Source of the DNA: a virus
Virus record (IMG/VR): IMGVR_UViG_3300044825_001594
Span: 1 to 32,459 of that record
DNA: 32,459 nt
Strand: one strand, 5' to 3'
Shown here: positions 16,801-32,024 of the stretch, piece after piece
How the letters are laid out: each line of letters begins with the position of its first letter
How positions within the stretch are numbered: position 1 is the first letter of the stretch
The notes under the pieces: generated by a model
Seen by the model: only the letters and a program-made list of their open reading frames with translations
Told to the model about the DNA's origin: nothing
Database searches by the model: none
Translations under genes and position numbers: made by a program

Positions 16801-18027
16801 TTACCTCCCCGCTACGAATGAACTTCCAGCGTTGAGGAAGGTGAAACAATATCTTAGCGCGTCCATCGCGTGGTTGTGCGCGTCTATCGGTATGCTGTGC
16901 TTCTTGTCGTTCCACGAGTATAGGCGCAGTTCGCGCTTGATGTCGTGGCTTTCCTGGCTGACTACTATTGTGAAGTCCTGCAGTGCGCGGATGCCATTCA
17001 GGATACTATCAGGACCCTTGTCGGCTTTCTGTGCGTTTACGCCGGCCTCTTGTAGTTCGGCAATCAGTCGCGGCTCGGATGTATCGCATATCACGGGCTT
17101 TCTACCCGTTCGCCGTGCAACATCGCCCCGTACGTTCGATGTGCTTAGGTTGGTGGCGTAGAGGTGCTGCCTGACATATACCCGTTTCAACTTCTTGTCA
17201 ATTGCCACCTCAACCAATGCGAGCGGGTCCGGGAAGAACCCGAAGTCCAGGCCATAGGCAGAGGGTAGGGATTCATCGAATGCGCCCTCTATCCAGTTCT
17301 GATACACCGCGCCCTCGCTGCGCTCAAGCCATTGGCCTAAAAAGCGGTGGGCGTACTTAGCGGGCTGCGTATCGCGTAGGTGTGTAATCTTATCCAGGTA
17401 GTCCTGCGAGAGGTGCGCTTTCGATACGTGCCAGGTAGTATGTATGTGCGTCAATTGCGGGTGGGTGCTGATCGGTACCTGGTGCCCGTCTATGTCGCGG
17501 TATTTCGTGTAGCCCTCGAACCAGCGGCGATATACCCAGTGGTCTGTGGTCTGTGGGTTCATCGCGATTAGAACGATGTTCGGGGCATCCTCCCGGCGTA
17601 TGCTTTCGTCTATCGTATCGAAGGCTGCCTCATCCACGAACTCCTCCGCTTCATCCACGATGAACACGTTTAGTTTAGGGATAGACTTTAGCCGTGCCGT
17701 CTGGTTCCCGCTGCTTGTCTTGATACCGGAAAACAGTATGTCCGTACCCGTTACCTTGTGCCGTATGTTGGTGCGCGTAATTTCCACGTCGCTATCCATA
17801 CCCAGCAGGCTTATTTTGTCCTGGAACTCCGGTATGATGGATATTTCCGCGGCTGTCATCGTATAGCGGGTGTATAGGATACGCCACCCAGGATGCCGGG
17901 AGAGTGCATCACACGCCCACAATGCCATGCTGAAAGACTTAGATGAAGCCCTCCCGCCTGTCAGTAGGATGTACCGCGTCTTGGGTAGCCAAAGCGGCTG
18001 ATATGCCTGGTTAATCTGTATCTGCAT
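16801..18027 (-). CDS. terL: Terminase large subunit
   Basis: This 408-residue packaging motor has all expected landmarks. Walker A is GGRASSKS at residues 24-31. Walker B is VFIVDEAEE at 121-129, with the catalytic Glu after Asp125. The C-terminal nuclease is of the RNase H type with Asp261 in YGLDFGFFPD, Asp315 in VICDTSEPR and Asp389 in DAHNHAMDALRY. It belongs to the Terminase_3/PBSX-like group. It pumps DNA through the portal using ATP and cuts concatemers. The start overlaps the small terminase by 17 bases. Confidence 0.95.
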   Translation of the reverse strand: MQIQINQAYQPLWLPKTRYILLTGGRASSKSFSMALWACDALSRHPGWRILYTRYTMTAAEISIIPEFQDKISLLGMDSDVEITRTNIRHKVTGTDILFSGIKTSSGNQTARLKSIPKLNVFIVDEAEEFVDEAAFDTIDESIRREDAPNIVLIAMNPQTTDHWVYRRWFEGYTKYRDIDGHQVPISTHPQLTHIHTTWHVSKAHLSQDYLDKITHLRDTQPAKYAHRFLGQWLERSEGAVYQNWIEGAFDESLPSAYGLDFGFFPDPLALVEVAIDKKLKRVYVRQHLYATNLSTSNVRGDVARRTGRKPVICDTSEPRLIAELQEAGVNAQKADKGPDSILNGIRALQDFTIVVSQESHDIKRELRLYSWNDKKHSIPIDAHNHAMDALRYCFTFLNAGSSFVAGR

Positions 18028-18331
18028 CCTTGATGAATACGATAGCGGCCGGGGCTTTAATCTCGTTGCCGCCTGTGGTGTGGTCTATCTGCTGCTTAGG
18101 GCGTCCGTAGCCGTATGCTAATAGCATATCAGCGGCCTTTAAGTTGCCGTCTATGGCCATCTGTCGTAGCCGCATGAGTACGGCCTCCAATGCGGTTTTC
18201 CCGTTCTTTTCGTCTGCGAGTAGTTCGGCCATTGCGCCTTTCAGGTCAGGCAGCTTGGGGCGTCCTGCGTTCTTGTTTACCCCGCCTGTTTTCAATTTAC
18301 CGCCATTACGGCCTGGTCTCATGTCTGACAT
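18011..18331 (-). CDS. terS: Terminase small subunit-like protein
   Basis: The 106-residue protein begins with the basic pattern RNGGKLKTGGVNKNAGRPKL, common to small terminases and DUF5681-type proteins. A helical domain (LEAVLMRLRQMAIDGNLKAA) and YGYGRPKQQ follow. It directly precedes and overlaps the large terminase. The expected role is recognition of the packaging site and loading of the large subunit. A second ATG three codons in is also possible as the start. Confidence 0.75.
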   Translation of the reverse strand: MSDMRPGRNGGKLKTGGVNKNAGRPKLPDLKGAMAELLADEKNGKTALEAVLMRLRQMAIDGNLKAADMLLAYGYGRPKQQIDHTTGGNEIKAPAAIVFIKDADTD

Positions 18332-18342
18332 ATTACGGGAAT

Positions 18343-18972
18343 TTAACGGGATTGGATTTCAATTATCCAAAAGTTCTTATCCTCTAACGCGAACGTGCGC
18401 CCGAACGTTTCCTCTACCGCCCTGGCAACACCTTCAAAGGCGGTGAAGTCGTCCCCGAACATTGTTCCGCCCGTTCTTAGTAGGGGCATGTATGCGGCAA
18501 TGTCGGCTTTCACATCGTCGTATTCGTGGCTCCCGTCTATGTATATGACGTCAGCCTGTACCTTTTCGCTACTTAGATACCGCGCTGCCATGAGCGAGGG
18601 CATGGGGATAGGCGTGATATAGCGCTCTACCCCTGCTGCCTGGACACAGCGCAGAAAATGGTAGTACACCCGTGGATAGCCGTGTTTCAGCATTAAATCG
18701 CGTTCCGGTGTGTCCTTATGCGTAGTCCAGAACTCCAGGGCACCCAACCAGGTATCTACGCAATAGATTCGCCCCATGCCGTTGGGTAGGTTGCGGGCCA
18801 TCTGAATAGCGCTTGCACCGTGCCAGGTTCCCACTTCGATAATCGTAGGCGCTACGTACTTAGATACGATGCGCTGAAATATCGGGTGTTCGCTATTCCA
18901 GCCCTGCGCCATCGGGAAAGCGTCATCGCTGTATGGTATGGGAAAGACGCCCTCTCCTATCTTGTTGCCCAT
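18343..18972 (-). CDS. Class I SAM-dependent methyltransferase
   Basis: The 209-residue protein has a Rossmann-type methyltransferase core. The SAM loop is IIEVGTWHGASAIQMARN (about 44-61), the acidic second strand RIYCVDTW (about 68-75), and the third block ADVIYIDGSHEYDDVKADI (about 139-157). This is the Methyltransf_24-like pattern often found with sugar or antibiotic tailoring genes. It lies at the end of the glycosyltransferase cassette, overlapping the GT2 gene by 16 bases, so O- or N-methylation of a sugar is the likely role. The acceptor is unknown. Confidence 0.75.
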   Translation of the reverse strand: MGNKIGEGVFPIPYSDDAFPMAQGWNSEHPIFQRIVSKYVAPTIIEVGTWHGASAIQMARNLPNGMGRIYCVDTWLGALEFWTTHKDTPERDLMLKHGYPRVYYHFLRCVQAAGVERYITPIPMPSLMAARYLSSEKVQADVIYIDGSHEYDDVKADIAAYMPLLRTGGTMFGDDFTAFEGVARAVEETFGRTFALEDKNFWIIEIQSR

Positions 18973-19844
18973 CGTTCGGGGTTTAGGTTGTCTAATCGGC
19001 TGTTTTCGCGGGTGCGTTGTGGTAGGTTCGCGAACACCTGCTCCATGTTGCGGGGCGTGACGGTGTTCTTAGTCGGGTCATCGTGGTTTTGGTGTATCAC
19101 CATTGCGGCCTCGTCGTGTGGGGTAATCGTGGGGATAGTCAACGCAGTACGGCGATGCAACAAGTCCACGTCTACCACGCCCCACACAGGCGATTCGTTT
19201 AGACCTCCCAGGGCTTCCCAGGTGGCACGGCTCCCGCCTCCCCATATCCACGAGTGCCATACCACATGCTTGTCCATTGCAGCGTGCACATAGTCGGCTG
19301 CAGGGCCTTCTATGGCCGTTCCTGGCACATCGTAGAAGTCCGGTATGTTGCGCACGTTCATTAAGTCATAGCCCATTTTAAGGCCATGCCAGTTGTCTTG
19401 CATGTATTCTTGCTGCGCAGGGGTAAGGTAGTAGCCCTTGCAGGAAATCCATAGCGGCGTATTGTACACCGCGCACGTCTGACGGGCTTGCTCCAGGGTG
19501 CGTTTCCCTGGCATTACCTCCGGGTGCGTGGCGAACACGGTTTCACAATGCAGGCTATAGAGGGCGTAGCTGATACCTTCGTTCAAGAACTGGGCGCTGT
19601 CCCGCCATTGGCCGTCGGGCTTTTCAAGTCGGAAGTAGTGAATATCCATCACATCTGCCCAATCGCGCACTACCTGCTCGGTGTGATCGGTGCTGGCATC
19701 GTCAATAATGATGAGACAGGTATCCTCTTTCATGGTTCGGTGGTACCATACCAGGGAGTTCTTTAGCAGGTGTGCGCGGTTGTAGGTGCCCATCACGACG
19801 GCGCAGCGGTATTGGAGGTCGGTGTGTTTTTCGGTGTATAGCAT
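18957..19844 (-). CDS. GT2-family glycosyltransferase
   Basis: This 295-residue GT-A fold enzyme has the N-terminal MGTYNRAHLLKNSLVWY motif and the IIIDDASTDHTEQVV motif (about 45-59) that bind the nucleotide sugar. WGGGSRATWEALGGLNES, with a VDVDLLHR motif after it, corresponds to the acceptor and metal region of GT2 enzymes. It starts one base after the GT75-like stop. It probably transfers a sugar to a phage or host glycan in series with the two upstream enzymes. Confidence 0.85.
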   Translation of the reverse strand: MLYTEKHTDLQYRCAVVMGTYNRAHLLKNSLVWYHRTMKEDTCLIIIDDASTDHTEQVVRDWADVMDIHYFRLEKPDGQWRDSAQFLNEGISYALYSLHCETVFATHPEVMPGKRTLEQARQTCAVYNTPLWISCKGYYLTPAQQEYMQDNWHGLKMGYDLMNVRNIPDFYDVPGTAIEGPAADYVHAAMDKHVVWHSWIWGGGSRATWEALGGLNESPVWGVVDVDLLHRRTALTIPTITPHDEAAMVIHQNHDDPTKNTVTPRNMEQVFANLPQRTRENSRLDNLNPERWATR

Positions 19845-19845
19845 G

Positions 19846-20781
19846 TTACTTGGTTAATGCCTGCCATTGGCGCAAGCGATTGGAATAAAGCGTTACATAG
19901 GGATGCAGCGAAGAATATGGCGGTGGCACATGCCCAAGTATTTCGGGCATATACTTATACATCGTCTCGTTGAGTTCCATCCCAGGGGCTTCTTTTCGCA
20001 GGTTCGCCCATACGTTAGACGCCCGGCGGTGTTCCACGACGGAGTAACCGGATACGGCGGCACCGTTCAGCACATTGTCAATTGCGTATTTCATTACCAA
20101 GCCCGCCCAGATGTCGGCGAAGCGGTCGAACACTTCCAGCCCGTCCTGGAGCAGCTTCCTACCCATAGGTGCTTGGTAGGCGTAGGGTAGCAGTTCTTTC
20201 CGAAAGGCGAAGTTCATGGCGCACACCGGGAAAAAGACATGGCGGGGGATGTGAAAATGGTTGAACTCCACATCTCGCAATTCGGGGTATTGGAGTTGTT
20301 GTATCGCATCCAGGTCGGGAACATTCGACCATAGCCCGTGGGATAGCAGTACGGGGTATTTGGGAAGATAGTACGGAACGCCCCGCATATTCATTTTCGT
20401 TTTCGTCGTGTTCTGCCAGTCCAGCACTACTTCCTGCCCGAGTGCATCAAGATGGGTTTGTATCGTATCGCCATTAGGCAACACATCATCATCCAGGGAG
20501 AGGTACACGTCGGGTTTCGAGTGCCGATGCGCGACAAGGAAGCCCAGGTTGCGCACGGCGTCCGTGAAATTATAGATACATGTGGGTATTTCGATTTCGA
20601 TATTACCCCATAGGAGTGCGCCTTCATAGTTGAAACGCTGTACTATGGGTATTTCCCCATCCAGGACGCGGTACACATCGCAGTTGTGCCGCTGGAACAA
20701 TTGCACCCAGGCGGGCATGAATTCGTCATCGAATAATTCCGGCCTGATTGTCGGGATAATTACCGCAATTTTCTTTTTCAT
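19846..20781 (-). CDS. Reversibly glycosylated polypeptide / UDP-arabinopyranose mutase-like (GT75)
   Basis: The start at 20781 overlaps the GT-B stop as ATGA, giving 311 residues. The sequence carries the signature blocks of the RGP/UAM family: IIPTIRP at 8-14, LSLDDDVLP at 94-102 (metal/nucleotide-sugar site), MRGVPYYLP at 132-140, SHGLWSNVPDLDA at 147-159, VCAMNFAF at 186-193, FADIWAGLV at 221-229 and HRRASNVWANLRKE at 251-264. Plant members interconvert UDP-arabinopyranose and UDP-arabinofuranose and glycosylate themselves. The plant arginine after DDD-containing regions cannot be aligned by eye with certainty. A substrate other than UDP-arabinose is possible. I consider the family call firm and the substrate open. 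Confidence 0.85.
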   Translation of the reverse strand: MKKKIAVIIPTIRPELFDDEFMPAWVQLFQRHNCDVYRVLDGEIPIVQRFNYEGALLWGNIEIEIPTCIYNFTDAVRNLGFLVAHRHSKPDVYLSLDDDVLPNGDTIQTHLDALGQEVVLDWQNTTKTKMNMRGVPYYLPKYPVLLSHGLWSNVPDLDAIQQLQYPELRDVEFNHFHIPRHVFFPVCAMNFAFRKELLPYAYQAPMGRKLLQDGLEVFDRFADIWAGLVMKYAIDNVLNGAAVSGYSVVEHRRASNVWANLRKEAPGMELNETMYKYMPEILGHVPPPYSSLHPYVTLYSNRLRQWQALTK

Positions 20782-21767
20782 AGGCTTTCCAGTATTGATT
20801 TTCGTAATTGGTTCCATGTGTCCAGGTTCCGGTGTTTTTCCATCCATGCCCGGCCTGTTTTCACAGTTTCTTGCTTATCAATCTTCCCGCTTCGTATCTC
20901 GCTCAATAGTACTTGCAAGTGCATGGGGTTCTTATAGCGCACTACGCCTGGGTGTTCCCATTCTGCCAGCCCTTCCGGCGCAAGGACGGCGCCTCCGGCG
21001 GTGAGGACCTCCATTGCAAATATGTTGGATTTCGCTTGGTTGAAGTCATCCAGGGTTAGGGGATACAAGCCCCAGTCTATACCACTATTCCGCATACCCT
21101 CAAATAGTTGGTACATCGTCTGCCAGGGGATGAAGTTGGCTTTCCCTTTGAACCAAGGCAGTAGGAACTTTTCGATACCGATGAACATGAGCGAAGTGGA
21201 CGGATCGTCTCCGAGCATACGCCACACCTTTTCAATTGTCCATAAGTCGTCCAAGTGCGTGGTGCTACCCCTCCAGAACACGCGCAATGGGTTGTGCTGT
21301 GGCACGATTTCGCCGTATGGGGTGCTTTGCATGTTCGGGCAATTAGGTACGACGTATATTGGCTTGTCGAAATATTGCGCGTAGAAGTCCGCCAGGAAGG
21401 GGGTGCTGACAATTAGCGCGTCGCCCATACTAAGGGCTGCATCCATCGTCTGTTTTACCTGTGGGTTGTTGAAGTGCTTCGATGCGGGGTTGGCATCGGT
21501 TAGCCCGTGTAGCAAGTCGTCAATATCCAGGAGTATCTTTTTCCCCATGCGCTTCGCCTCTGCTATGAAATTCAGCGTTTCATCGCCGTTGGGGCGTTGC
21601 ACCACCATCACATCTGACGTGTACATGTGGTGCCATTTGCAGTTTTGGGGGTATTGGATTTCCAGGCTGATACTTTTATCTACTTCCGCCAGGCGCCCGA
21701 ACGGGCCAATGGTGCGGTAATAGTCCGTTGCCGCGCTGGTTGGGTTGGCTAATATGAGTATCTTCAT
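20778..21767 (-). CDS. GT-B fold glycosyltransferase
   Basis: This 329-residue protein looks like a GT1/GT4-type glycosyltransferase. The N-terminal Rossmann strand is MKILILANPTSAATDYYRT. ILLDIDDLLHGLTDAN follows at about 78-93, VPNCPN at about 139-144, VFWRGSTTHLDDLW at about 163-176, and the donor-binding region KSNIFAMEVLTAGGAVLAPE at about 246-265. The N-terminal DYYR pattern is shared with phage and prophage members. It is the first gene of the sugar cassette and overlaps the 80-residue upstream gene by 4 bases and the GT75-like gene by 4 bases. Confidence 0.8.
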   Translation of the reverse strand: MKILILANPTSAATDYYRTIGPFGRLAEVDKSISLEIQYPQNCKWHHMYTSDVMVVQRPNGDETLNFIAEAKRMGKKILLDIDDLLHGLTDANPASKHFNNPQVKQTMDAALSMGDALIVSTPFLADFYAQYFDKPIYVVPNCPNMQSTPYGEIVPQHNPLRVFWRGSTTHLDDLWTIEKVWRMLGDDPSTSLMFIGIEKFLLPWFKGKANFIPWQTMYQLFEGMRNSGIDWGLYPLTLDDFNQAKSNIFAMEVLTAGGAVLAPEGLAEWEHPGVVRYKNPMHLQVLLSEIRSGKIDKQETVKTGRAWMEKHRNLDTWNQLRKSILESL

Positions 21768-23122: not shown

Positions 23123-23136
23123 TGTTTGGTTTTTAG

Positions 23137-23211
23137 CCGCAGGGGTGGGAGTCGAACCCACTATCTCCAGCCTGGTAATGAGCTGGCGGAATGCCGTTTT
23201 CCCACCCCACG
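23137..23211 (-). tRNA. tRNA-like gene with 10-nt anticodon loop
   Basis: Read from 23211 to 23137, the sequence folds into a cloverleaf. The acceptor CGTGGGG pairs with CCCTGCG (two G-U pairs). The D stem GGAA/TTCC has a 7-base loop containing GG. The anticodon stem is CCAGC/GCTGG, the variable loop has 5 bases, and the T arm is GTGGG-TTCGACT-CCCAC. The anticodon loop TCATTACCAG has 10 bases instead of 7, or 8 if a T-G pair closes it. CAT (Met) or TAC (Val) could therefore be presented. No CCA is encoded. Everything outside the anticodon loop is standard. Confidence 0.7.
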
Positions 23212-28768: not shown

Positions 28769-29464
28769 TCAGAAAAGTTTTTGCTGGGCGACATGAGCCT
28801 CTACCCTTTTCATGGCAGCGGCGAAGTACTCCGGGTCAAGTTCGCAGCCTGTCAAATCGAAATTGTAATCGTGGCAGGCAATGGCGATGGATGCGCTGCC
28901 TAAGTGCGTGTCCAGGATGCGGTCGCCTGGTTTGGCGTAATTGTGGAGCAGCCACTTGTATAGGGCGACGGGCTTTTGGGTTGGGTGAAATTTTTTCTCC
29001 CATAGCTTGTTGTTGCCTTGTGCTATCCTGCCTTCTTTAACGCTTTTACCCTGAGCAATACACCACATGTATTCAATTTGCCTAACAGCGGTATTAAATG
29101 AAGTCCATGCAAGTTCGCAGTCCGCTTGGTCTGAATTGCCGTTAACCTTATCCCACACAATCCAACAGCTTTTTGCTGGCAACAAGTCCGCAAAATAATT
29201 CCCGCCCCATATTATTTGATTTTTCGATACCCTTCTTAACTCTGAAAAATAATCTAAATCAGGTCGTTTATCATCCCAATACCCAACCTTTTTTGGCTTG
29301 GTTATTATCAAGCGTCCGTTTCTTGGGTCTCTCGCTGGGGTTTTTCTTACAAAAGCCCTATCTGCTTTTATCCCATACGGCGGGTCAACAATAGCTAACT
29401 GAAAATACCCATCAGGATACCGCGCCATAAGCTGCATACAATCCTCGTTCGTTAGTGTGAGCAT
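28769..29464 (-). CDS. DNA methyltransferase (beta-class, N6A/N4C)
   Basis: This 231-residue enzyme has motif IV DPPYGI at 27-32, then the HPTQKPVALYKW block at 160-171, and the SAM-binding motif I (ILDTHLGSASIAIACHDYNF) at 183-202, followed by GCELDPEYF. The order IV...I is that of beta-class amino-methyltransferases. Small phage enzymes of this type protect DNA from host restriction or mark it for packaging. It starts 3 bases after the stop of the previous gene. The motif DTHLGSAS instead of DPFxGSG is a known variant. The recognition sequence cannot be inferred. Confidence 0.85.
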   Translation of the reverse strand: MLTLTNEDCMQLMARYPDGYFQLAIVDPPYGIKADRAFVRKTPARDPRNGRLIITKPKKVGYWDDKRPDLDYFSELRRVSKNQIIWGGNYFADLLPAKSCWIVWDKVNGNSDQADCELAWTSFNTAVRQIEYMWCIAQGKSVKEGRIAQGNNKLWEKKFHPTQKPVALYKWLLHNYAKPGDRILDTHLGSASIAIACHDYNFDLTGCELDPEYFAAAMKRVEAHVAQQKLF

Positions 29465-30129: not shown

Positions 30130-30669
30130 CTAAACCTGAAATATATCTAATTGCCCTTGTTGTGATCGCCACACTTTTACAAGCCCTGGGAGTTCTTTCC
30201 ATTCAATGAACAAAAATTTATTATCGCTCTTCTTGTCTTTAAATTTATGTTTTTCGTTCTTGTAAACCTCATACAAGTCTATTGTTCGGATAGCCCCTAT
30301 TGATAGACAGTTGTTCGTATCAGTTTTGTCAAAGTACGCTTGTACCGTGAAAACGGGATAGAAATATGCTTTTTCAATCGCCTCAATACGTTTTTCAAGC
30401 TCCGTCTTTGCGCCTGTATGCCTTTCAAGTCGTATCGTAAAACTGTCGTATGCGTGTCCCCATTGTGCCCTCCATGCTATACCCTGAAGCCCGTGCGCGT
30501 CTTTTCGCAGTAGGTCTATACCGCTGTGTTTGTCAAGCCAGCCTAATACTTCGTTGTCTGTGGTCTCTATGCTTACTATTGTGCCCGATATGATTTTGGG
30601 CATTACGGTATGTTTGATAGCCTCAAAAGCCTGTGCGCTCTTTTTCAAGTCTTTTACCCAATCTTGCAT
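30130..30669 (-). CDS. Unknown protein overlapping the ParB-methyltransferase
   Basis: The 179-residue protein starts 16 bases inside the methyltransferase gene. It has WLDKHSGIDLLRKDAHGLQG followed by IAWRAQWGHAYDSFTIR, then FYPVFTVQAYFDK and a C-terminal KFLFIEWKELP. The GID...GIAWRAQ arrangement is reminiscent of PD-(D/E)XK-type nucleases (GID...IxxKxQ), but the catalytic Glu-X-Lys is not clear: Q replaces it. I recall uncharacterised homologues in Bacteroidota. It could be the nuclease of a restriction-modification pair, or a degenerate or accessory form. Confidence 0.55.
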   Translation of the reverse strand: MQDWVKDLKKSAQAFEAIKHTVMPKIISGTIVSIETTDNEVLGWLDKHSGIDLLRKDAHGLQGIAWRAQWGHAYDSFTIRLERHTGAKTELEKRIEAIEKAYFYPVFTVQAYFDKTDTNNCLSIGAIRTIDLYEVYKNEKHKFKDKKSDNKFLFIEWKELPGLVKVWRSQQGQLDIFQV

Positions 30670-32024
30670 CCGCGTTGTTTTGCTATTTCAATATTGTCCT
30701 GGTCAAGTTCGCAGCCTATCCCTACCCTACCCAGGCGAGAGGCTGCCAGTAAGAATGTGCCCGTACACGCGAATATGTCCAGGACGGTATCCCCCGGCCT
30801 GGATGCGTGGCGTATGAGCCTATTTGCAAGTTCATCGGGCTTTTGCCAGGTATGGTATCGGTTGCCCTGCCTTCCATCGGGTGCGTTAATGTCCTGGACA
30901 GAAAACATTTCATTCGTTACCGACGTGTCAAGTTCGCGGCTGCTATCCCGGTACAAATGCCAAATAAGCTGATAGTTCAAGTTGTACCGCGTCCTGGGTG
31001 TTTGGCCTAACGTATTGCGGTATGTCCATACCAGGGGGGCATCCACTATGAAGCCCGTTTGTTTGAAGGCTGTCAGATAGGCCAGCATTTCATCAGGATA
31101 AGCCCCGGTGCAAATATATGCCCTGCCTTCGGGCTTTAATTTAGCCAACAACATGCCCAGCCAGGAGGATATGAACCCGTCGAAGTCCGCGTTTTGAAAT
31201 TCGGTAAGGTACGGGGGATCGGTCAAGATTAGGTCTATACTGCTATCCGCAATGTCATTCAGGTATTCGCGGCAATCCATCAGGTGGACAGTGGGCATCC
31301 TCTTTTGTTCTTCTTCTGCCTGTCTTAGTTCTGCGAGTTGCCTTTTCTCCAACACTATTTGAAGCCTGGCAATCTTTACAGATATGCCTTTCTGCATAGC
31401 CCGCTCAAGCGCCTCGCTTGCTATTGCAGTACTGCCTCCTTTTTTCGGGTCAAGCAGTTTAACAAGTTCGTCAAGGTCGGTACCACTATCCTCGAAGCGG
31501 GTGCCTTTTATCAGGTGGGCAATAGGCTGCAGGGCTTTGCCGCGCAATGTGTCGCGCCTAACGTTTCTTTCAGATACACCTTGTGCTTTGGCTGCATTCT
31601 CGGTATAGGTTTCGGGATTTCGTTCGTTCAAGTGGCCAACTTGGCCACTTGATTTCGCTTCATGGCTTTTTCTATCACCTCCATGTTTTACTTCTGGATG
31701 CAATGTTTCATAAATCTCCTTACGCCTATTCTGCCAGGTAGCCCGCTCCAGCATCGTCAATTCATTGCGGATTAAGTTCTCGTCTATCTCCGCAAGTTCG
31801 GCCTGTAGCCCGTCCAGTTCTACGATAATAGCCGGGATAGTATCCCAGCCCAATTCTTTGCAGGCAGTCAGGCGGTGAAAGCCTGCAATCAGTACCAGGT
31901 CAGCGGTAACGGTAATAGGCTGCATTAGCCCAATTTCGCGTATGCTGTCCTTTAGGCTGTCCAGGTTGCCAACCTGTCGTTTTCGGTCGCGCACTATTAC
32001 GCGGTCAATCTCTATTTGGTTCAT
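30654..32024 (-). CDS. ParB-like domain fused to DNA methyltransferase
   Basis: This 456-residue fusion has an N-terminal ParB/Spo0J-like domain (about 1-110: SIREIGLMQPITV, then LIAGFHRLTACKELGW) with the box that is usually GERR changed to GFHR. A helix-turn-helix-like stretch (ENAAKAQGVSERNVRRDTLR, about 142-161) follows. The C-terminal amino-methyltransferase (about 240-456) has motif IV DPPY at 269-272 and motif I DIFACTGTFLLAA at 416-428, then GCELD. ParB-methyltransferase fusions are common in phages and may methylate specific sites for protection or gene control. A terminator-like hairpin ends 4 bases before its ATG. Confidence 0.85.
   Translation of the reverse strand: MNQIEIDRVIVRDRKRQVGNLDSLKDSIREIGLMQPITVTADLVLIAGFHRLTACKELGWDTIPAIIVELDGLQAELAEIDENLIRNELTMLERATWQNRRKEIYETLHPEVKHGGDRKSHEAKSSGQVGHLNERNPETYTENAAKAQGVSERNVRRDTLRGKALQPIAHLIKGTRFEDSGTDLDELVKLLDPKKGGSTAIASEALERAMQKGISVKIARLQIVLEKRQLAELRQAEEEQKRMPTVHLMDCREYLNDIADSSIDLILTDPPYLTEFQNADFDGFISSWLGMLLAKLKPEGRAYICTGAYPDEMLAYLTAFKQTGFIVDAPLVWTYRNTLGQTPRTRYNLNYQLIWHLYRDSSRELDTSVTNEMFSVQDINAPDGRQGNRYHTWQKPDELANRLIRHASRPGDTVLDIFACTGTFLLAASRLGRVGIGCELDQDNIEIAKQRGCKIG

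What the first reader, a model, noticed from the sequence alone, without database searches (positions are those of the whole stretch)
19846..20781. Plant-like UDP-arabinopyranose mutase / RGP (GT75) homologue in a phage
The protein carries multiple signature blocks of reversibly glycosylated polypeptides (LSLDDDVLP, SHGLWSNVPDLDA, FADIWAGLV, HRRASNVWANL). This family is best known from plants, where it makes UDP-arabinofuranose. In a phage it suggests supply of an unusual furanose sugar, or self-glycosylation as a primer, for decorating virion, DNA or host glycans. Some T-even-like phages (RB69 type) arabinosylate their DNA, so an arabinose link is worth testing.
Basis: partly seen in the sequence, partly recalled or inferred. 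Interest (0 to 1): 0.85.

Follow-up and report, generated by a model that had tools for sequence, protein, structure and literature searches.

The report
Phage enzyme making furanose sugar donors
This phage gene really does belong to the plant "reversibly glycosylated polypeptide" enzyme family, with an intact active site, and it sits in a tight four-gene sugar-handling operon beside the packaging genes, so it most likely makes a five-membered-ring sugar donor for decorating phage proteins, though nothing ties that sugar to arabinose or to DNA.

Summary
Its AlphaFold2 model (pLDDT 92.8) matches the two solved GT75 enzymes best, MtdL (1.3e-15) and rice UAM2 (9e-15), far ahead of other GT-A folds. 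The metal-binding and catalytic residues known from MtdL are kept: DDD97-99, R133 (the reactive arginine), D156, R220, D223, H251. It is gene 2 of a translationally coupled operon: glycosyltransferase, RGP, GT2 transferase, methyltransferase. The operon recurs in a distant phage with an unrelated terminase and lies beside packaging genes. Best reading: a metal-dependent NDP-pyranose/furanose mutase feeding a soluble, probably virion-directed, methylated-glycan cassette. The arabinose/DNA link is not supported: no dCMP-hydroxymethylase-type gene in the window or relatives, no NDP-arabinose genes, and the sugar-pocket residue is Asp as in the GDP-fucose mutase MtdL, not Ser as in plant UAMs. GT75 genes are widespread in phage contigs and already annotated there, so this is a new member of a known kind. 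Substrate and target are unproven.

The parts
19846..20781 (-). GT75/RGP-family putative NDP-pyranose mutase, 311 aa
   Evidence: PF03214 E=5.9e-26; AF2 model vs MtdL 1.3e-15 and rice UAM2 9.3e-15; catalytic residues conserved
20485..20493 (-). codons of the DDD metal/NDP-sugar motif (residues 97-99)
   Evidence: MtdL D109-D111 equivalents, residue mapping; roles from PMC9937993
20383..20385 (-). codon of R133, equivalent of the reversibly glycosylated arginine (OsUAM1 R158, MtdL R159)
   Evidence: mapping; invariant in all 20 and all 34 members of A2/A3
20778..21767 (-). glycosyltransferase, PHROG 7162 (GT-B/GT4-like by inspection), first gene of the cassette; its stop overlaps the RGP start (ATGA)
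   Evidence: phrog_7162 E=4.9e-22; junction; relatives near RGP in L005, L012, L014, L021
18957..19844 (-). family 2 glycosyltransferase, candidate furanosyltransferase; starts 1 nt after the RGP stop
   Evidence: PF00535 E=1.7e-7; the three viral relatives found all sit next to an RGP gene; junction
18343..18972 (-). SAM-dependent methyltransferase (Methyltransf_24; weak match to the rhamnosyl O-methyltransferase family RMNT_CmcI); overlaps GT2 by 16 bp
   Evidence: PF13578 E=1.7e-19, PF04989 E=6.5e-5 at its cut-off
16801..18027 (-). terminase large subunit, downstream of the cassette after the terminase-small-like gene 18011-18331 (context)
   Evidence: PF04466 E=3.8e-27, phrog_2

Best explanation
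The protein is a GT75 enzyme: a metal-dependent, FAD-free mutase that interconverts the pyranose and furanose forms of a nucleotide sugar drawn from the host's pool. Its conserved arginine (R133) transiently takes the sugar while the ring is opened and re-closed through O4 (mechanism inferred from MtdL and plant UAMs). The two glycosyltransferases encoded on either side use the furanosyl donor (and perhaps a second host sugar) to build a short glycan, and the fourth gene caps it by O-methylation. All four proteins are soluble and lie beside the packaging genes, so the acceptor is most likely a cytoplasmic phage protein such as a capsid or tail protein. Shown by computation: family, fold, intact active site, operon, recurrence of the operon. 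Inferred: mutase activity (about 0.8 likely), that the product feeds the neighbouring transferases (about 0.7), methylation of the sugar and a virion target (about 0.5). The sugar is not known; Asp at the MtdL-87 position hints at a hexose such as L-fucose, L-galactose or D-galactose rather than arabinose.
For: PF03214 E=5.9e-26; profile to rice UAM 7e-47 and MtdL 1.2e-35; AF2 pLDDT 92.8 with MtdL/UAM2 as the seven top PDB hits, TM 0.68-0.72, next GT-A at 5e-6. D41, R77, DDD97-99, R133, D156, R220, D223, H251 match MtdL residues shown essential or ligand-binding in PMC9937993. Translational coupling of the four genes: ATGA overlap, 1-nt gap, 16-bp overlap. Same order GT-RGP-GT2-MT in L005 at 28/50/40/60% identity, next to a different (phrog_9) terminase; RGP-GT2-methyltransferase-like next to terminase in L006; RGP after a terminase-like gene and before a GT in L007. 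Separate phages show a parallel kit of PHROG-7162-like GT, GT2, RGP, NDP-sugar dehydratase-like SDR (L012, L014, L020-L022). Within 3 genes of phage RGPs, GT2 11/117 and GDP-mannose-dehydratase-like SDR 7/117, against 3/104 and 0/104 for genes 6-8 away (Fisher p=0.056 and 0.015; loci not phylogenetically independent). No transmembrane segment in any of the four (max 19-aa hydropathy 1.35). Precedent for virion glycosylation by phage glycosyltransferases: Che8/Corndog as cited in PMC11256854 and PMC12363180.
Against: No activity data. Some plant GT75 paralogues are inactive (PMC9937993). Q229 of MtdL, essential there, is Met here (as in nearly all UAM-side members), so MtdL cannot be copied literally. 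The acceptor is unknown; adjacency to packaging genes is only suggestive. The GT2 model failed (pLDDT 46), so its furanosyltransferase role is untested. No NDP-sugar biosynthesis gene lies in the window, so supply from the host is assumed.
Confidence: 0.6

Rival explanations
1. The enzyme is a true UDP-arabinopyranose mutase and the phage uses UDP-L-arabinofuranose to arabinosylate its hydroxymethylated DNA, as the first reader suggested by analogy with RB69.
For: Same family as plant UAMs; P10 and acidic E43 resemble the UDP-type residues of plant enzymes (PMC9937993).
Against: No thymidylate-synthase/dCMP-hydroxymethylase family gene in the window or relatives, no Tet/JBP or other hypermodification family among ORFs scanned; sugar-pocket D74 instead of plant Ser; no NDP-pentose genes; RB69's published candidate genes are others. 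The record may be incomplete, so absence is not absolute.
Confidence: 0.05
2. The cassette remodels the host surface: the furanose and methyl group go to host LPS or capsule to block superinfection or change the receptor.
For: Phage serotype-conversion genes commonly encode glycosyltransferases (general knowledge); weak PHROG match of the GT2 gene to GtrB-like O-antigen conversion (E=0.019).
Against: No flippase (GtrA-like) family among window Pfam hits, no transmembrane segments in any cassette protein, and location among packaging genes.
Confidence: 0.2
3. The protein works as a glycosyltransferase rather than a mutase: it glycosylates its own arginine, or an arginine of another phage protein, as a primer for the neighbouring transferases.
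For: GT75 enzymes autoglycosylate the arginine that is conserved here as R133; it is flanked by two transferases that could extend a primer.
Against: The arginine adduct is proposed as a mutase intermediate in this family, and arginine mutants lose mutase activity (PMC9937993); I know of no GT75 protein shown to be elongated as a primer.
Confidence: 0.08
4. A catalytically dead or moonlighting GT75 relative, like AtRGP5 or OsUAM2.
For: Inactive plant paralogues exist; the N-terminal half differs markedly between window and L002 (47-68% DNA identity against about 90% in the flanks).
Against: R220 and H251, whose loss was linked to AtRGP5 inactivity, are both intact, and DDD is intact whereas rice UAM2 has DDN; all catalytic positions are conserved in the clade despite strong divergence.
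Confidence: 0.07

Closest known systems
MtdL (Marinactinospora GDP-L-Fuc/L-Gal pyranose mutase; PDB 7xps, 7yua)
   Same: Fold, DDD, reactive Arg, D195/R257/D260/H287 equivalents, and Asp at position 87 in the sugar pocket
   Different: About 20% identity; T13, N42, Q229 are P, E, M here; on the tree it falls with the cyanophage-type branch, not with the window clade
Plant UDP-arabinopyranose mutases/RGPs (rice UAM2, PDB 8cid; OsUAM1, AtRGP1-3)
   Same: PF03214, same fold, RG-x-P arginine motif, P at MtdL position 13
   Different: T-D instead of D-S at MtdL positions 86/87; about 19% identity to UAM2; no evidence for arabinose
Phage GT75/RGP proteins already in databases (BFVD A0A6J5N5Z7 'Reversibly glycosylated polypeptide', uncultured Caudovirales phage; soil-phage GT75 mentioned in PMC12016548)
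   Same: Same family in phages; closest BFVD structure match, E=5e-21, 36% identity
   Different: Window clade has its own site signature (T-D, DDDV, A-M) and its own operon
Mycobacteriophage Che8/Corndog virion glycosylation
   Same: Phage-encoded glycosyltransferases decorate virion proteins (as cited in the papers)
   Different: No GT75 mutase mentioned in the passages read; target not tested here
RB69 arabinosyl-hmC DNA modification
   Same: Phage glycosylation with a pentose
   Different: Needs a hydroxymethylase and other genes; none found here

Membership tests
GT75 / PF03214 (RGP) | Significant match to the curated profile over its cut-off | tested here: met
   91.9 bits vs 23.8, E=5.9e-26
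GT75 / PF03214 (RGP) | GT-A fold most similar to solved GT75 members | tested here: met
   Top 7 PDB hits are all MtdL or rice UAM2
GT75 / PF03214 (RGP) | DDD motif | tested here: met
   D97-D99
GT75 / PF03214 (RGP) | Reversibly glycosylated arginine (OsUAM1 R158, MtdL R159) | tested here: met
   R133, invariant in A2 and A3
GT75 / PF03214 (RGP) | Other catalytic/metal residues D195, R257, D260, H287 of MtdL | tested here: met
   D156, R220, D223, H251
GT75 / PF03214 (RGP) | Metal-dependent NDP-pyranose mutase and autoglycosylation activity | not testable with these tools
   needs purified protein
UDP-arabinopyranose mutase (plant UAM) | Plant-type pair D-S at MtdL positions 86/87 | tested here: not met
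   T73-D74; plant residues from PMC9937993
UDP-arabinopyranose mutase (plant UAM) | UDP-type residues at MtdL positions 13 and 42 (P, D) | tested here: inconclusive
   P10 identical, E43 only similar in charge
MtdL/Hyg20-type GDP-sugar mutase | T13, N42, S86, D87, Q229 | tested here: not met
   P, E, T, D, M: only D87 is identical, S86 is replaced by the similar Thr
RB69-type arabinosyl-hmC DNA modification | dCMP hydroxymethylase (thymidylate-synthase family) | tested here: not met
   PF00303: 0 of 1 window, 0 of 3 relatives; control genomes rang; records may be incomplete
Phage virion glycosylation cassette (Che8-like) | Glycan on capsid/tail proteins dependent on the phage transferases | not testable with these tools
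   only gene order available

The most novel reading that the evidence does not exclude
A phage, probably of Bacteroidota, brings a mutase activity its host phylum lacks (no PF03214 protein over cut-off in 395 sampled genomes of the presumed host phylum) to make a non-arabinose hexofuranose donor, for example GDP-L-fucofuranose or a galactofuranose, and coats its virion with an O-methylated furanose glycan that the host cannot itself make.
Probability: 0.3. Interest if true: 0.65.

Novelty: new member of a known kind. Interest (0 to 1): 0.42.

Why it matters
GT75 is described as the only glycosyltransferase family that also works as a sugar-ring mutase, with two bacterial members characterised at the time (PMC9937993). 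Phage contigs hold over a hundred homologues, often in compact sugar cassettes, so the phage branch offers small, testable enzymes with natural variation at the very positions thought to set nucleotide and sugar choice. If the cassette decorates virions, it would be a furanose virion glycan made by enzymes absent from the host group.

Tried and rejected
RB69/DNA arabinosylation: looked for hydroxymethylase-family genes in window and relatives, none. Plant origin: the tree puts the gene in a phage-only clade on the RGP/UAM side with deeper placement unresolved (quick tree, several long branches). Structure of the GT2 partner: pLDDT 46 with only four sequences, unusable, so not searched. Looking for NDP-sugar genes to name the substrate: none in the window; the dehydratase-like proteins beside RGP in L012, L014, L020-L022 are nearest to dTDP-glucose 4,6-dehydratase but far below that family's cut-off, so they do not fix the sugar. 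Literature search for GT75 in phages found only a passing mention. NCBIfam gives no name to the RGP, the PHROG-7162 GT or the methyltransferase. Portal protein gave no hit in named phages, so it did not help with the host.

Full report
What is there. The finding's interval holds an open frame on the minus strand only: ATG at 20781, TAA at 19846, 311 aa. Pfam names it RGP (PF03214) at E=5.9e-26, almost four times the curated cut-off in bits. PHROGs and NCBIfam have no family for it. phmmer against PDB finds MtdL (E about 1e-10) and a rice UDP-arabinopyranose mutase (5e-8); a profile of 20 relatives finds the rice protein at 7e-47 and MtdL at 1.2e-35. An AlphaFold2 model from 34 sequences has pLDDT 92.8, pTM 0.91, and its seven best PDB matches are all MtdL or rice UAM2, with the next GT-A enzyme more than eight orders of magnitude worse.

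Active site. PMC9937993 lists the MtdL residues that bind Mn2+, nucleotide and sugar and tests most by mutation. The MtdL chain was rebuilt from the printed alignment, its numbering checked against 20 named residues, and aligned with the window protein and about 70 relatives. D40, R90, D109-111, R159, D195, R257, D260, H287 and R289 correspond to D41, R77, D97-99, R133, D156, R220, D223, H251 and R253 and are kept. Rice UAM2, reported inactive, has DDN and lacks the R257 and H287 equivalents. Two regions set specificity in MtdL. For the base, T13/N42/S86 are P10/E43/T73 here: the first two look like the UDP-type plant enzymes, the third is a small residue as in MtdL rather than the plant Asp that blocked GDP binding. 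For the sugar, D87, which touches O4 of L-fucose or O6 of glucose and whose change to the plant Ser abolished MtdL activity, is D74 here. Of the RGP/UAM-side members aligned, only the window clade (window, L002, L005, L006, L007) has Asp there. This argues mildly for a hexose and against arabinose; it does not identify the substrate.

Neighbourhood. The gene is the second of four tightly coupled genes: a PHROG-7162 glycosyltransferase (20778-21767), the RGP, a GT2-family transferase (18957-19844) and a Methyltransf_24 protein (18343-18972), with junctions ATGA, 1 nt, and 16-bp overlap. None has a membrane segment. Terminase small-like and large genes follow. The same four genes in the same order occur in L002 (near relative, 41.7-kb contig) and in L005, where identities are only 28, 50, 40 and 60% and the terminase belongs to another PHROG family. 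L006 has RGP, GT2 and a different methyltransferase-like gene just before terminase and portal; L007 has RGP after a terminase-like gene, followed by a GT. Scans for the GT2 protein found only loci where it sits beside an RGP gene (three of three). Other phages carry a parallel kit with a PHROG-7162-like GT, a GT2, the RGP and an NDP-sugar dehydratase-like protein (L012, L014, L020-L022). Over 24 dereplicated phage loci, GT2 and NDP-sugar dehydratase/epimerase families are commoner within three genes of the RGP than six to eight genes away (11 vs 3 of 117 and 104; 7 vs 0); the p values (0.056, 0.015) are modest and the loci are related. So phage RGPs tend to belong to glycan-making cassettes.

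Distribution. One profile scan gave 127 viral contigs encoding relatives (80 kept) and another 26 cellular loci, mainly CPR/Patescibacteria. Named phage records include a 595-kb uncultured phage and cyanophages such as S-T4. The tree puts window, L002, L005 and L007 in one starred phage clade on the RGP/UAM side; MtdL groups with the cyanophage-type branch. Terminase matches point to phages of Flavobacteriia and other Bacteroidota (about 41% identity) and the capsid weakly to a Bacteroides phage, so a Bacteroidota host is likely but not proven. In 395 sampled genomes of the phylum of a MAG titled 'Bacteroidetes' none has PF03214 over cut-off, which suggests that the phage adds an activity the host group lacks.

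What it is not. DNA arabinosylation needs hydroxymethylated bases; no thymidylate-synthase-family protein is found in the window or in three relatives while the control genomes ring, and no other base-hypermodification family appears among the scanned ORFs. The RB69 paper names other genes and no mutase. A surface-conversion role is possible, but the absence of membrane proteins and the place among packaging genes make a cytoplasmic acceptor, hence a virion protein, more likely; phage virion glycosylation has precedent.

Status of claims. Shown: family, fold, intact site, operon, recurrence. Inferred from homologues: metal-dependent pyranose-furanose interconversion through R133. Inferred from context: donor supply to the flanking transferases, methyl capping, virion target. 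Unknown: nucleotide and sugar. Phage GT75 proteins are already annotated as RGP in public databases and mentioned as soil-phage genes, so the kind is known; the window adds a distinct clade and a clear operon.

Noticed in passing
window 20331-20690 vs L002 8001-8993: Between two phages about 90% identical in the flanking genes, the N-terminal half of the RGP gene drops to 47-68% DNA identity with indels while the C-terminal half is nearly identical in protein: a mosaic or fast-evolving segment covering the nucleotide/sugar-binding half.
   Followed up: partly
window 23136-23211, minus: ARAGORN calls a tRNA with a four-base anticodon (CATT) where the relative L002 has an ordinary tRNA-Met (CAT): degenerate gene, one-base change, or a frameshifting tRNA.
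   Followed up: partly
L004 7785-8693 (cyanophage S-T4) and relatives such as L045, L047, L049, L057: A protein annotated 'hypothetical' or 'putative membrane protein' in cyanophages is an MtdL-like GT75 with intact DDD, Arg and Asp residues (Gln replaces the metal His), next to phosphoheptose isomerase and heptose-kinase-like genes; possibly a heptofuranose route.
   Followed up: partly
L090-L103, L105, L106: GT75/RGP genes recur in CPR/Patescibacteria genomes, some with two copies in one locus (L093, L099).
   Followed up: no
window 30654-32024, minus: ParB N-terminal domain fused to an N6/N4 DNA methyltransferase; a second DNA methyltransferase lies at 28769-29464.
   Followed up: no
L003 9219-9851 and 12183-12986: In a 595-kb uncultured phage the RGP gene is followed directly by a likely structural protein gene and flanked by two sulfotransferase-like genes.
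   Followed up: no
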